This document shows positions 4,013-8,577 of a stretch of 28,379 nucleotides of DNA, piece by piece; position 1 is the stretch's first letter; every line of letters begins with the position of its first letter. Source of the DNA: a virus; the IMG/VR virus record IMGVR_UViG_3300020416_000046, positions 1 through 28,379 of that record. One strand, written 5' to 3'. A program made the position numbers and the translations under genes. The notes under the pieces are model-generated. The model made no database searches, was not told the origin of the DNA, and was given only the letters and a program-made list of their open reading frames with translations.

Positions 4013-4720
4013 TTGAAAAAATTTATTTTTGATGTTGACGGGACTCTCACACCCGCCAGAAAAGAAATTGATGGTGAGTTCTTACCATTTTTCTATGACT
4101 TTGCCACAAAACATGATGTCTACTTAGTAACAGGTAGTGACAGAGAGAAGACATTAGAACAACTCACACCAAGTTTATATAACAAATGTACCAGAGTATA
4201 TAATTGTTCTGGTAGTGATGTGTATGAGGGCACTAAGAATGTCTATAGGGACGATTGGGAATTGCCTGATGATGTAAAAAGACACCTAGAAAATGAATTA
4301 TTATTCAGTAGGTTTCCAATTCGTAATGGAATTCATATAGAGGTTAGACCTGGCGGTGTAAACTTTAGCATACTGGGTAGAGCAAATACATGCTTTATAG
4401 AAAGAGAAGAGTATGTTAAATGGGACAACTTAACCCATGAAAGAAAAGAAATTGCTAGAAGACTTAGACTAAAGTTTCCAGAACTAGAGGTACAGATAGG
4501 AGGACAAACAGGTTTAGACCTAGCACCACTAGGAAGAAACAAAAGTCAAATCCTTAGAGACTTTCAAACTACTGACGAGTTACACTTCTTTGGTGATATG
4601 ATGGAGAAAGGTCAGAATGATTATGCTTTAGCAAAAGCAGTACAAGAAAAGGGCGGTTTTCACTACCATGTAAAAGATTGGGTGGACACCCGAACCAAGT
4701 TAGTCGGTATAACCGATTGA
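4013..4720 (+). CDS. HAD-family phosphatase, phosphomannomutase-like
   Basis: The N-terminus FDVDGTLTPARKEI holds the HAD motif DxDGT (D7, D9) in the form typical of eukaryotic-type phosphomannomutases. Motif II is at VTGSD (residues 39-43). Later come GGQTGLDLAPLGRNKSQ (K178 region) and FFGDMMEKGQNDY (D195), which match the cap/core pattern of that family. Such enzymes interconvert mannose-6- and mannose-1-phosphate, but a simple sugar-phosphatase role is equally possible. At 235 residues it is near the usual length. Translation starts at a TTG just after the regA stop. The gene sits between regA and hsp20. A 7-bp hairpin (4702-4718) ends at its stop codon. Confidence 0.7.
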   Translation: MKKFIFDVDGTLTPARKEIDGEFLPFFYDFATKHDVYLVTGSDREKTLEQLTPSLYNKCTRVYNCSGSDVYEGTKNVYRDDWELPDDVKRHLENELLFSRFPIRNGIHIEVRPGGVNFSILGRANTCFIEREEYVKWDNLTHERKEIARRLRLKFPELEVQIGGQTGLDLAPLGRNKSQILRDFQTTDELHFFGDMMEKGQNDYALAKAVQEKGGFHYHVKDWVDTRTKLVGITD

Positions 4721-4750
4721 CCATATATAATATTTCTGTTTAAATAGTAA

Positions 4751-4767
4751 TGTCGCCTTCGGGGACA
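4751..4767 (+). promoter_or_regulatory. UUCG-capped hairpin in the hsp20 leader
   Basis: TGTCGCCTTCGGGGACA folds into a short stem (TGTC/GACA plus a C-G pair closing a TTCG tetraloop, with a G-G mismatch between). It is 28 bases before hsp20 and is not followed by a T-run, so it is unlikely to be an intrinsic terminator. A TTAAATA element (4740-4746) and a TATAAT-like box (4726-4731) lie just upstream. It may protect or regulate the hsp20 mRNA. Confidence 0.45.
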
Positions 4768-4795
4768 CAATTACACTCGCTTAATAAGGAGAACT

Positions 4796-5224
4796 ATGGA
4801 CATTCAGAAGTATCATTCTGCCGATCTACCAACTATCATAGATCGCATTTCAAGGAATAGCATCGGATTAGATAATTATTTCGATCAATTCTTTACAACA
4901 GATTTTAACACTAGTTACCCACCATACAATTTGGTTAATGTTAGTAATGTTGAATCAAGACTAGAAATAGCATTAGCAGGGTTTTCTAAAAAACAAGTTA
5001 AGGTTTACACAGAGTATGGTAAACTAGTTGTAGAAGGTAACAAAGAAAACAAAAAAGAACCTGAGAACTATACTCACAGGGGATTAGCACAAAGAGCGTT
5101 TACTAGATCATGGACTATCGCAGACGATACAGTTGTCAAGAAGGTAGTGTTTGAAGACGGTTTATTAACTGTCACATTAGGTAAGATCGTTCCAGAGCAT
5201 CATGAACGAAAAGACTGGATTTAA
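4796..5224 (+). CDS. hsp20: small heat shock protein Hsp20
   Basis: A 142-residue alpha-crystallin-type chaperone, a common gene of T4-like cyanophages. The alpha-crystallin domain runs from about residue 43 to 132: YNLVNVSNVESRLEIALAGF, then KLVVEGNK, RAFTRSWTIADD, and the closing FEDGLLTVTLGK, which carries the conserved G-x-L-T-V pattern. These proteins hold unfolding proteins in an ATP-independent way and may help virion assembly or protect the host photosystem during infection. It has the best ribosome binding site in the window (AAGGAG, 6 bases before ATG), its own leader with a hairpin, and a strong terminator directly after, so it looks like a separate transcription unit. Confidence 0.92.
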   Translation: MDIQKYHSADLPTIIDRISRNSIGLDNYFDQFFTTDFNTSYPPYNLVNVSNVESRLEIALAGFSKKQVKVYTEYGKLVVEGNKENKKEPENYTHRGLAQRAFTRSWTIADDTVVKKVVFEDGLLTVTLGKIVPEHHERKDWI

Positions 5225-5235
5225 ACACATTTCTC

Positions 5236-5261
5236 TGGGGGTTGGCAAACCCCCATTTTTT
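5236..5261 (+). terminator. intrinsic terminator after hsp20
   Basis: An 8-bp perfect stem, TGGGGGTT (5236-5243) with AACCCCCA (5248-5255), has a GGCA loop and is followed at once by six T. This is a textbook rho-independent terminator placed 11 bases after the hsp20 stop. Confidence 0.93.
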
Positions 5262-5271
5262 ATGTTATAAT
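5242..5271 (+). promoter_or_regulatory. sigma70-like promoter within the terminator
   Basis: TTGGCA (5242-5247) and a perfect TATAAT (5266-5271) are separated by 18 bases, a near-ideal host-type promoter. The expected transcript start is near 5278, at the beginning of the hairpin-rich region 5278-5467. The -35 box lies in the terminator loop and stem, so termination and initiation are packed together. Cyanophage early genes are commonly driven by host sigma70, so this could be the early promoter for the gp43 operon. Confidence 0.55.
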
Positions 5272-5275
5272 AACT

Positions 5276-5467
5276 GGGTAACGACGGTTACATTGGGTGT
5301 GACTGAATAAACTTACTGGCATATAGCTGGTTAAGGTGATGCGACAGAGGTGGTGCTCGCTACTGGCAACAGTAGAACTTCTCAACCAAGAAGGTCGTAG
5401 GCAGGGGAGTTTTTCTAATCTGTAGAAATGCCCTCCTCTTGTTGGTATACAGGAATCCAACCACCCA
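5276..5467 (+). ncRNA. candidate structured RNA upstream of the gp43 operon
   Basis: No convincing protein is encoded between 5262 and 5489, but the sequence is rich in perfect helices: GTAAC/GTTAC with a GACG loop (5278-5291); CTACTG/CAGTAG with a GCAA tetraloop (5360-5375); CTTCT/AGAAG (5378-5393); TGCGAC/GTCGTA (5340-5345 with 5394-5399) enclosing the last two; GGGGAG/CTCCTC (5404-5409 with 5433-5438) with inner TTTCT/AGAAA; GTTGG/CCAAC (5441-5461). TGGGTG (5294-5299) can pair with CACCCA (5462-5467), which would compete with the last helix at 5461-5462 or close the whole fold. TGGTT (5328-5332) can pair with AACCA in the loop at 5384-5388, a possible pseudoknot. It follows a sigma70-like promoter and precedes two small genes and gp43. 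It could be a riboswitch-like leader or a separate RNA; I do not recognise the class. Confidence 0.55.
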
Positions 5468-5489
5468 CCCTACACTACATGATGGTATT

Positions 5490-5801
5490 ATGTCTATTAA
5501 AGTTGGAATATTAAATGACGGTACACAACTTCTTGCTGATATAAAAGAAGTTTTGGATGGTGATACTAAACAATATATGGTCATAAAACCATTTGAGATT
5601 GTGTACACAGACGCAATGGAATTGTTAGAAGAAAATAATGCCACAAAAGCAACAACTAAACAAGTTGGATTAAAAACTTGGTTAGAAATATCAGAGGATG
5701 ATACATTCATTATAAATCCTAATACAGTCACTACAATATGTGATCCTGTACCTGATTTACGATCAATGTATGAAGACCTAACTGCAGGAAGAAGAATCTA
5801 A
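5490..5801 (+). CDS. small conserved phage protein, first of a related pair
   Basis: I chose the ATG at 5490 (MSIKVGILNDGTQL), giving 103 residues; an upstream TTG at 5439 would extend the frame into the structured RNA and adds a sequence unlike a protein start. The product begins with a beta-rich half (KVGILNDGTQLLADIKEVLD) and ends with FIINPNTVTTICDPVPDLRSMYEDL. The following gene has the same layout, so the two look like an old tandem duplication. I recall similar proteins before gp43 in cyanophages, with no known role. The first half is loosely reminiscent of Sm-like folds, but that is weak. The stop overlaps the next ATG by one base (TAATG). Confidence 0.65.
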   Translation: MSIKVGILNDGTQLLADIKEVLDGDTKQYMVIKPFEIVYTDAMELLEENNATKATTKQVGLKTWLEISEDDTFIINPNTVTTICDPVPDLRSMYEDLTAGRRI

Positions 5802-6085
5802 TGGCATCACCTATCATAAAATTACTCGTTCTAAAAAACGATTCTAAAGTTTTAATTACTAAAATTAGAGAAGTACAAAGTGAATTAGGAGAACCTGATT
5901 GTCAATTGACAGATCCTGTTGAATTTAGAATTGAAGAAGGAACAGATTGGAAAGAAAGATTACAAAGGTGGCCAGGTAAACAACTGACACAAGACCACCA
6001 GTGCATGATATCATCTGATGCTATACTAACAATTGTAGATCCTCAACCAGAATTGTTGGAGGCATATCAAGAGGTTATTAGTTGA
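5801..6085 (+). CDS. small conserved phage protein, second of a related pair
   Basis: A 94-residue protein parallel in layout to the gene before it: PIIKLLVLKNDSKVLITKIREV at the start corresponds to the first copy's IKVGILNDGTQLLADIKEV, and ISSDAILTIVDPQPELLEAYQEV at the end to its INPNTVTTICDPVPDLRSMYEDL. The middle parts differ. No membrane segment or catalytic motif is visible. The last codons overlap the TTG start of the polymerase gene, so its translation may feed gp43 expression. Function unknown. Confidence 0.65.
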   Translation: MASPIIKLLVLKNDSKVLITKIREVQSELGEPDCQLTDPVEFRIEEGTDWKERLQRWPGKQLTQDHQCMISSDAILTIVDPQPELLEAYQEVIS

Positions 6086-8577
6086 AGTTTTATACAAATG
6101 TTTGCATGATCGGGGACAAGTTTCTCGTCCGTGGATACGATAATGGCGAGTATTTTCAGATCCGTGACGATTATCAACCTACCCTATTTGTATCATCAAA
6201 TAAAAAAACACATTACAAAACTCTCGATGGTAAAAGCGTAGCACCTATTAAACCTGGTACTGTGCGAGAAACCAGAGATTTTATAAAACAATATGAGTTT
6301 GTAGATAATTTCCAAGTATTTGGTAATGAAAGATTTATTTACCAATACATATCAGACAAATATCCTCAAGACGAAGTTAAGTTTGATGTTAGTAAGATTC
6401 GTCTATACACGATGGATATTGAAACTAGATCAGAGAATGGATTCCCTGATGTAGAGGCAGCAGATCAAGAGATGTTATTGATCTCTATGCAAGATTATAA
6501 TACAAAAGAGATTATTACATGGGGTATTGGTAAGTTCAAGTTAAAGCAAGAGAATGTATATTACAAACAATTTAATAATGAGTTTGATTTACTAAGTGAT
6601 TTTATACAATGGTGGATTAAAAATACTCCAGACATTGTGACTGGTTGGAACATACAAATGTTTGATATACCATATCTCGCAAAAAGATTGTATAGAGTTC
6701 TAGGTGAGAAAACTGCTAGAAGATTGTCCCCTTGGGGTCTAGTGTCTCCAAAAGAACTTTACATCAAAGGTCGTCGTCATGTTGTATATGATATAGGTGG
6801 TATCACACAATTAGATTACCTAGATCTATACAAGAAATTTACATATAAAGCACAAGAATCTTACCGACTAGAATACATTGCACAGGTAGAACTAGGACAC
6901 ACAAAACTAGATCACTCTGAGTTTGATACATTCAAAGATTTCTACACTCATGGGTGGCAAAAATTTGTAGAATATAACATTGTCGATGTGGAACTAGTTG
7001 ATAAACTAGAAGACAAAATGGGTCTTATTCAGTTGGCATTGACTATGGCATATGATGCCAAAGTAAATTACAATGATGTGTTCTATCAGGTTCGCATGTG
7101 GGACAATATAATTTACAATTATCTAAAGAAAAGAAATATTGTTATTCCTCCTAAATTATCTGAACAAAAGGATGAAAAATATGCAGGTGCATATGTAAAA
7201 GAACCTATACCTGGCAAGTATGATTGGGTGGTATCCTTTGACCTTAACAGTCTGTATCCTCATTTGATTATGCAGTACAATATATCACCAGAAACATTAT
7301 TAGAAAGCAAACATCCTACTGTATCAGTCAAAGATATACTTGAAAAAAATATAACTTTTGAAATGCATAAGGATAATTCTATTTGTGCTAATGGTGCAAT
7401 GTATCGCAAAGACAAGAGAGGGTTCTTGCCTGAGTTGATGGAAAAGATGTATAATGAAAGAGTCATTTTCAAGAAGAGAATGATCAAAGCAAAGAAAGAA
7501 TATGAGAAAACTCCCACTAAAGATCTTGAGAAAGAGATTGCTCGATGTAACAACATCCAGATGGCAAAGAAGATATCTCTTAACTCTGCCTATGGTGCGA
7601 TTGGTAATCAATACTTCCGCTATTATCAATTAGCAAACGCAGAAGCGATTACTTTATCTGGACAAGTTTCTATTCGTTGGATAGAAAACAAAATGAATGC
7701 TTACCTCAACAAAATCTTAAAGACCAATGACAAAGATTATGTTATTGCTAGTGATACTGATTCTATCTATCTTAACCTCGGTCCTCTCGTCGATGTTATT
7801 TACAAAGATAAGGAGAAAAATTCTGAAAGCATTGTCTCATTTCTTGATAAAATTTGTGAGGAGAAATTTGAACCCTTCATCGACCAGTCCTACAAAGAAC
7901 TAGCAGAGTATGTAAATGCCTATGACCAAAAGATGTTCATGAAGAGAGAGAACATCGCTGACAGGGGCATATGGACTGCTAAGAAGAGATATATTTTAAA
8001 TGTATGGAACAGCGAAGGTGTGCAATATACCGAACCTAAACTAAAGATGATGGGTATTGAGGCAGTCAAGTCATCAACACCTGCACCTTGTCGCACAATG
8101 ATTAAAGATGCACTTAAGTTGATGATGAATGGCACTGAAGATGATGTAATTAAATTCATCGAAGACAGTCGTAAGAAGTTTAGGAAGTTGCCTCCAGAAG
8201 AAATAGCATTCCCAAGATCTGTTTCTGATGTGACCAAATATAAATCAAACAACATGATCTATATAAAAGGCACACCTATTCATGTGCGTGGTGCACTACT
8301 GTTTAATCATTACATTAAACAAAACAAATTGACGAATAAGTATTCGTTAATTGGTAATGGTGAGAAGATTAAGTTCTGCTACCTTAAAAAACCAAACAAA
8401 ATACATGAAAATGTGATATCATTTATTCAAGACTTTCCTAAAGAATTGGGTATTGACAAATACATTGACCATGACTTACAATTCAATAAGAGTTTTCTTG
8501 AACCTTTGAGAATTATTCTTGACTCTATCGGTTGGAGAGTTGAGAGAACTGCAAACCTTGAATCATTTTTTGTATAA
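6082..8577 (+). CDS. 43: family B DNA polymerase gp43
   Basis: The replicative polymerase with 3'-5' proofreading. The exonuclease part has D112 and E114 in TMDIET (Exo I), the GWNIQMFDIPYL block (Exo II) and YNIVDVELV (Exo III). The polymerase part has motif A DLNSLYP (387-393), motif B KKISLNSAYG (496-505) and motif C DTDS (558-561), so all catalytic Asp residues are present. At 831 residues it is shorter than T4 gp43 (898), mainly between motifs A and C, where the distance is about 40 residues less than in T4. Translation starts at a TTG overlapping the stop of the preceding gene by 4 bases. The stop overlaps the uvsX start by one base. There is no intron or intein: the motifs are continuous in one frame. 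Confidence 0.97.
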   Translation: MKFYTNVCMIGDKFLVRGYDNGEYFQIRDDYQPTLFVSSNKKTHYKTLDGKSVAPIKPGTVRETRDFIKQYEFVDNFQVFGNERFIYQYISDKYPQDEVKFDVSKIRLYTMDIETRSENGFPDVEAADQEMLLISMQDYNTKEIITWGIGKFKLKQENVYYKQFNNEFDLLSDFIQWWIKNTPDIVTGWNIQMFDIPYLAKRLYRVLGEKTARRLSPWGLVSPKELYIKGRRHVVYDIGGITQLDYLDLYKKFTYKAQESYRLEYIAQVELGHTKLDHSEFDTFKDFYTHGWQKFVEYNIVDVELVDKLEDKMGLIQLALTMAYDAKVNYNDVFYQVRMWDNIIYNYLKKRNIVIPPKLSEQKDEKYAGAYVKEPIPGKYDWVVSFDLNSLYPHLIMQYNISPETLLESKHPTVSVKDILEKNITFEMHKDNSICANGAMYRKDKRGFLPELMEKMYNERVIFKKRMIKAKKEYEKTPTKDLEKEIARCNNIQMAKKISLNSAYGAIGNQYFRYYQLANAEAITLSGQVSIRWIENKMNAYLNKILKTNDKDYVIASDTDSIYLNLGPLVDVIYKDKEKNSESIVSFLDKICEEKFEPFIDQSYKELAEYVNAYDQKMFMKRENIADRGIWTAKKRYILNVWNSEGVQYTEPKLKMMGIEAVKSSTPAPCRTMIKDALKLMMNGTEDDVIKFIEDSRKKFRKLPPEEIAFPRSVSDVTKYKSNNMIYIKGTPIHVRGALLFNHYIKQNKLTNKYSLIGNGEKIKFCYLKKPNKIHENVISFIQDFPKELGIDKYIDHDLQFNKSFLEPLRIILDSIGWRVERTANLESFFV

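What the first reader, a model, noticed from the sequence alone, without database searches (positions are those of the whole stretch)
5262..5489. Candidate structured RNA between hsp20 and the gp43 operon
In a window where genes overlap, this 230-base stretch encodes no convincing protein. It starts with a near-perfect sigma70 promoter (TTGGCA, 18 bases, TATAAT) and contains at least five perfect hairpins, one with a GCAA tetraloop and one with a GACG loop, plus a possible long-range closing helix (5294-5299 with 5462-5467) and a possible loop-loop pairing (5328-5332 with 5384-5388). It ends just before the first of two small genes leading into the polymerase. This looks like a riboswitch-type leader or a stand-alone phage RNA. 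Cyanophages are known to carry structured RNAs such as the manA and wcaG motifs; I cannot tell whether this is one of them or new.
Basis: partly seen in the sequence, partly recalled or inferred. Interest (0 to 1): 0.75.

Follow-up and report, generated by a model that had tools for sequence, protein, structure and literature searches.

The report
Cyanophage manA RNA at polymerase operon
The stretch is a full-length copy of manA, a large folded RNA of ocean cyanobacterial viruses known since 2010 but of unknown function; comparing relatives suggests it is an optional insert placed at the start of various early viral transcripts, and possibly a free-standing RNA, rather than a switch tied to one gene.

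Summary
Confirmed and identified. Window 5277-5471 (+) is a full-length manA RNA (Rfam RF01745, 184 bits, gathering score 55). Its structure is backed by covariation in 63 relatives. It starts 6 nt after the -10 box of an 11/12 sigma70 promoter (5242-5271). The -35 box lies inside the intrinsic terminator hairpin of the upstream hsp20 gene (5236-5255). The family is known, so the feature itself is a new member.

The function usually assigned, cis-regulatory leader, fits poorly. manA occurs once in each of 32 records searched, 12 of them complete phage genomes, at unrelated sites: before gp32, talC, purS or DUF6561, after gp23 or pstS, or next to tRNAs. Two phages of one species carry it at different loci. 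Most gp43 operons lack it. Where present, it sits exactly at the start site of a strong promoter. About 40% of loci have a tRNA, terminator or terminator-like motif before the next gene. I favour a discrete, early-transcribed RNA acting in trans; in this window it is also the 5' leader of the DUF6561-gp43 operon.

A new optional 3' domain of manA (118 contigs, 117 directly after manA) is absent from Rfam but not present in this window.

The parts
4796..5224 (+). hsp20 gene upstream
   Evidence: PF00011 E 8e-13, phrog_432 E 1e-50
5236..5261 (+). intrinsic terminator of hsp20: 8-bp hairpin TGGGGGTT-GGCA-AACCCCCA plus TTTTTT
   Evidence: hairpin -14.6 kcal/mol, z -3.0
5242..5271 (+). sigma70 promoter: -35 TTGGCA (5242-5247, inside the terminator hairpin), 18-nt spacer holding the T-run, -10 TATAAT (5266-5271) with TG before it
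   Evidence: 11/12 match; near-perfect promoter at the same place in at least 86 of 91 relatives
5277..5471 (+). manA RNA, full length; start coincides with the expected +1
   Evidence: RF01745 184.1 bits, E 4.8e-50, model 1-192 of 192
5278..5291 (+). 5' terminal hairpin with GACG loop
   Evidence: GACG is the loop in 69 of 91 relatives
5295..5466 (+). closing helix, 5295-5299 with 5462-5466
   Evidence: 100% paired in 63 sequences, double changes at 2 of 5 pairs
5351..5388 (+). possible kissing interaction UGGU 5351-5354 with ACCA 5385-5388
   Evidence: pairing kept in 98.8% of cells but no covariation
5360..5375 (+). hairpin with GCAA (GNRA) tetraloop
   Evidence: covarying stem, 4 of 5 pairs with double changes; GNRA loops frequent in relatives
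5490..5801 (+). first downstream gene, DUF6561 family with weak Sm_like similarity
   Evidence: PF20198 E 1.5e-8 over cut-off; PF16243 Sm_like E 2.6e-4 below cut-off
5801..6085 (+). second downstream gene, DUF6561
   Evidence: PF20198 E 6.5e-25
6082..8577 (+). gp43 DNA polymerase
   Evidence: phrog_262, 1203.9 bits

Best explanation
Window 5277-5471 is a manA RNA. Host RNA polymerase with a sigma70-type factor starts at its first hairpin, from a promoter fused to the hsp20 terminator, so the RNA forms the extreme 5' end of an early transcript. I infer that manA is a discrete structured RNA that acts in trans, at one copy per phage genome, and that it exploits whichever early promoter it sits behind. 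In this phage it has been inserted between the existing DUF6561-gp43 promoter and the first gene, so here it also serves as a roughly 210-nt leader. Shown here: identity, structure, promoter position, single copy, variable site, presence/absence at homologous promoters, tRNA neighbours. Inferred: early timing, a stable or processed RNA, action in trans. Its molecular target is unknown.
For: Identity. Covariation: 26 pairs with double changes, 0/500 shuffles. Promoter at the RNA start: 86 of 91 non-redundant loci score at least 9/12 against 2.2% of random positions; 78 score at least 11/12 against 0.04%. One copy in each of 32 records, 12 of them complete phages, at unrelated sites and before 30 different downstream gene clusters. 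P-HM1 and P-HM2, same species: manA follows gp23 in one, with its own terminator before a late-type promoter, and precedes gp32 in the other; the P-HM1 gp32 promoter is intact without manA. Three homologues of this window's promoter-gene junction lack manA, and 57 of 60 gp43 loci lack it. tRNA within 130 nt downstream in 10 of 93 loci, with gaps of a few nt in several; L116 has manA between two tRNAs with 0-1 nt gaps and no promoter. Intrinsic terminator directly after manA in another 15 loci.
Against: In 44 of 93 loci, and in this window, a gene starts within 60 nt and no terminator was seen. 21 of 24 close homologues of the first gene keep manA upstream, as a cis element would. The terminators after manA could be regulated attenuators. 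The loci are related and were picked by an exact core pattern, so the counts are not independent. No expression data were available. No trans target is known.
Confidence: 0.55

Rival explanations
1. manA is a cis-acting leader (riboswitch or other sensor), as catalogued: it controls the gene that follows, here the DUF6561-gp43 operon, through its fold, by termination or translation.
For: Rfam type is cis-reg and Weinberg 2010 (PMC2864571) lists it as cis-regulatory and possibly a riboswitch. 5' leader position here and in 44 of 93 loci. Terminator-like hairpins follow some copies. In L238-L241 a motif with a T-run lies between manA and the DUF6561 gene. The conserved complex core is typical of aptamers.
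Against: Single copy per genome at unrelated genes. Same-species relocation. Next to or between tRNAs. Homologous promoters are found without it.
Confidence: 0.33
2. manA is a cis-acting transcript module without gene specificity: it stabilises the 5' end or tunes the timing or output of whatever early transcript carries it.
For: Nearly always at +1 of strong promoters; starts with a stable hairpin; gene identity does not matter.
Against: Copies with their own terminator or followed only by tRNA carry no mRNA. A stabiliser would hardly need some 195 nt with dozens of invariant bases, nor be limited to one copy.
Confidence: 0.1

Closest known systems
manA RNA (Rfam RF01745)
   Same: Full-length match at 184 bits, same core and helices, cyanophage setting, upstream of replication-related genes, hsp20 (ibpA) nearby
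   Different: The published view is a cis-regulatory 5' UTR element. Here it is downstream of hsp20, and comparison shows an optional insert at +1 of a shared promoter.
wcaG RNA (RF01761)
   Same: Another orphan structured RNA of cyanophages
   Different: No match in this window
T4 stable RNAs C and D (rnaC, rnaD)
   Same: Works-like comparison only: discrete small stable RNAs beside tRNA genes of a T4-like phage (annotation)
   Different: Shorter (139 and 119 nt); no manA match in that region even at E up to 1

Membership tests
manA RNA RF01745 | covariance model score over the gathering cut-off | tested here: met
   184.1 against 55.2 bits
manA RNA RF01745 | complete consensus structure with covarying helices | tested here: met
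   model 1-192 of 192; covariation in 63 sequences
manA RNA RF01745 | conserved core GUGACUGAAUAAACUU ... GGUGGUGC ... AAUGCC | tested here: met
   exact core at 5299-5356; alignment
manA RNA RF01745 | pseudoknot marked with a question mark by Weinberg 2010 | tested here: inconclusive
   UGGU/ACCA nearly invariant, no covariation; the original figure was not readable, so it may not be the same pairing
manA RNA RF01745 | lies in the 5' UTR of a downstream gene | tested here: met
   met in this window (gene start at 5490); across the family only about half of the loci
metabolite riboswitch | binds a ligand and controls the adjacent gene | not testable with these tools
   no binding or expression data
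metabolite riboswitch | tied to functionally related genes across genomes | tested here: not met
   30 downstream gene clusters; homologous operons lack it
wcaG RNA RF01761 | covariance model match | tested here: not met
   no match at gathering or up to E 10 in 5150-5650
T4 RNA C / RNA D | shared sequence and structure | tested here: not met
   manA model finds nothing in the T4 region at E up to 1

The most novel reading that the evidence does not exclude
manA is not a riboswitch but a trans-acting phage RNA, one per genome. It moves between start sites of early promoters (including tRNA operons), and a subset of it carries a previously undescribed 3' domain (CCUAAGAUGCAAC...GGGCAGAUGG).
Probability: 0.5. 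Interest if true: 0.72.

Novelty: new member of a known kind. Interest (0 to 1): 0.48.

Why it matters
manA has been an orphan riboswitch candidate since 2010, and the papers found here still call it cis-regulatory. If it is a free-standing RNA, ligand searches keyed to neighbouring genes were aimed at the wrong question. Deletion, northern blot and pull-down in culturable phages such as P-HM1, P-HM2 and P-SSM2 become the direct tests. The P-HM1/P-HM2 pair and the manA-lacking gp43 promoters are ready-made natural comparisons.

Tried and rejected
wcaG or another Rfam family: no match. Protein-coding reading: annotated ORFs over manA in P-HM1, P-HM2, P-SSM4 and S-SSM5 lie on covarying RNA and look spurious. 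Folding energy alone: weak (z -1.6). T4 rnaC/rnaD homology: none. Link between the 3' motif and GNRA loops in the GCAA-loop hairpin: loop types are alike with and without the motif. PDB relatives of the two DUF6561 proteins: none. Sm-like protein as dedicated partner: DUF6561 follows manA in only 9 of 93 loci, so not specific. First automatic promoter count was spoilt by a wrong hairpin choice and was replaced, which still misplaces the hairpin for the window itself, L030 and L042.

Full report
What it is. Rfam's manA model (RF01745) matches window 5277-5471 (+) over its full length at 184.1 bits, E 4.8e-50, against a gathering score of 55.2. It is the only Rfam match in the window. The window is a 28-kb linear virus record, similar to Prochlorococcus phage P-SSM2 and related T4-like cyanophages. 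Gene order is PMM-like (4013-4720), hsp20 (4796-5224), manA, two DUF6561 genes (5490-5801, 5801-6085), gp43 (6082-8577).

Is it real structure? In an alignment of 63, the model structure has 95.4% of cells paired, 26 pairs with changes on both sides, and no measure reached by any of 500 shuffles. Sliding the partners by 1-3 columns drops pairing to 35-51%. The loop at 5384-5388 more plausibly meets 5351-5354; those bases hardly vary, so this stays untested.

The promoter is fused to a terminator. The -35 box TTGGCA lies in the 8-bp intrinsic terminator hairpin of hsp20 (5236-5255, then TTTTTT), and the -10 TATAAT follows at 5266-5271. In relatives the same design recurs: the closing T-A pair and TGAC loop of the hairpin spell TTGACA, and the T-run serves as spacer. 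A strict scan finds such a composite in 39 of 93 non-redundant loci, against a terminator in 1.1% of random 60-nt windows. It is not private to manA: 11 more were found elsewhere in the same loci and many before DUF6561 genes without manA. A sigma70-type promoter of at least 9/12 ends 3-9 nt before the manA hairpin in 86 of 91 loci, against 2.2% of random positions. Three of the five misses, the window among them, are errors of the hairpin finder, since the promoter can be read by eye. So the RNA begins at, or within a nucleotide or two of, the expected transcription start.

Is it tied to its neighbours? Each of 32 records searched, 12 of them complete phage genomes, has exactly one manA. Sites differ: after gp23 (P-RSM4, S-SSM5, P-HM1, metaG-MbCM1), between regA and the purine gene (P-SSM2), after pstS (P-SSM3, P-SSM4), before talC (P-RSM6, P-TIM40), before gp32 (P-HM2), after a ferredoxin gene (P-SSM7). 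Across 93 loci, downstream proteins fall in 30 clusters; the largest are gp32 (14), talC (11) and DUF6561 (9) (gp32 and talC named from the annotated phage homologues and by sequence).

Natural comparisons. P-HM1 and P-HM2 belong to one species and are about 90% identical in this region. In P-HM1, manA follows gp23 with a terminator/promoter before it, a terminator-like hairpin after it, and then CTAAATA, which I read from general knowledge as a late-type promoter. P-HM2 has no manA there. In P-HM2, manA sits between the gp32 promoter and gp32; P-HM1 keeps that promoter without manA. For this window's own operon, 21 of 24 close homologues of gene 5490 have manA upstream, and three have the composite promoter joined directly to the gene. 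Of 60 gp43 loci with enough upstream sequence, 57 lack manA, and about 20 show a promoter of this type just before the DUF6561 gene. So manA is an optional insert at +1 of an existing promoter; whether it was gained or lost at each site was not polarised on a tree.

Stand-alone or leader? In 10 of 93 loci a tRNA follows within 130 nt, in several with gaps of a few nucleotides; in 15 others a terminator follows; in 14 others a new motif follows; in 44 an ORF starts within 60 nt. ARAGORN tRNAs are rare in these contigs (11 in 676 kb), and 7 of them lie directly after manA; these loci may share descent. In L116 manA fills the space between two tRNAs, and in L092 it abuts a tRNA, both without a promoter. 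I read this as a discrete RNA, with moderate confidence. The cis-leader reading is not excluded for this window, where no terminator separates manA from the gene.

A new 3' domain. Many manA copies are followed after 7-19 nt by ACCUAAGAUGCAAC-loop-GGGCAGAUGG. A search not conditioned on manA found 118 IMG/VR contigs; 117 have manA directly upstream and the last is cut off by its contig end. Three loci with it gave no Rfam match to the motif at E up to 1. Its outer stem has G-C/A-U and A-U/U-A changes; most inner pairs are invariant, partly because the search pattern fixed them. 58 of 118 are followed by a T-run. The CCUAAG/AUGG part recalls a tetraloop receptor or a kink-turn; this is a resemblance from memory, not tested. 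The window lacks it.

Literature. Weinberg 2010 (PMC2864571) lists manA as certainly an RNA, cis-regulatory, possibly a switch, in 5' UTRs of mannose/fructose, nucleotide, ibpA and photosynthesis genes. Rfam 14 (PMC7779021) corrected its structure. S-CREM1 (PMC9964418) and a 2025 review (PMC12197685) repeat the cis-regulatory label. I found no paper in the library that treats it as stand-alone or reports the 3' domain; the library is incomplete.

Limits. Loci are related and were sampled by an exact core pattern; promoter and terminator controls are random positions, mostly coding; no expression data were available.

Noticed in passing
L010:523-555, L012:3493-3526 and 116 other contigs: Conserved hairpin motif ACCUAAGAUGCAAC...GGGCAGAUGG, not in Rfam, found only directly 3' of manA RNA; likely an optional extra domain of manA, often followed by a T-run.
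   Followed up: partly
window 5236-5271; L018, L019, L022, L037, L072; L265-L325: Compact terminator-promoter fusions in cyanophages: the -35 hexamer lies in the loop and closing pair of an intrinsic terminator hairpin and the T-run is the spacer. Recurs upstream of several early genes, with or without manA.
   Followed up: partly
L018 (- strand) and L072 (about 10231 onward), also L330: Another conserved leader starting right after such a promoter (GTCAGAGAAATACTGGCTGCGGTTATGCCCTTTGGTAGGTTCAG...), upstream of DUF6561-like genes; no Rfam match in L018 or L072 at gathering. Possible undescribed structured RNA.
   Followed up: no
window 4749-4795; L020, L025, L037: hsp20 5' leader with conserved GTCGCCTTCGGGGACA hairpin and ACACTCGCTTA...AAGGAGAACTATG shared among cyanophage hsp20 genes.
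   Followed up: no
window 5490-6085: Tandem DUF6561 genes before gp43; the first has weak similarity to the Pfam Sm_like domain (E 2.6e-4, below cut-off), so may have an RNA-binding-type fold.
   Followed up: partly
window 4013-4720: Phage gene with similarity to eukaryotic-type phosphomannomutase (PF03332, E 2e-22); its PHROG family (phrog_29277) has no function assigned. Similar genes also follow manA directly in several relatives.
   Followed up: no
GU071101 PHM1_121, GU075905 PHM2_011 and PHM2_012, AY940168 PSSM4_169.1, GU071097 SSSM5_127: Hypothetical proteins annotated across manA RNA in public phage records are probably spurious.
   Followed up: no
L122 (Prochlorococcus single-cell contig), L123 (gammaproteobacterial MAG contig): The only two GTDB matches to the manA core pattern; both may be phage DNA in cellular assemblies.
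   Followed up: no
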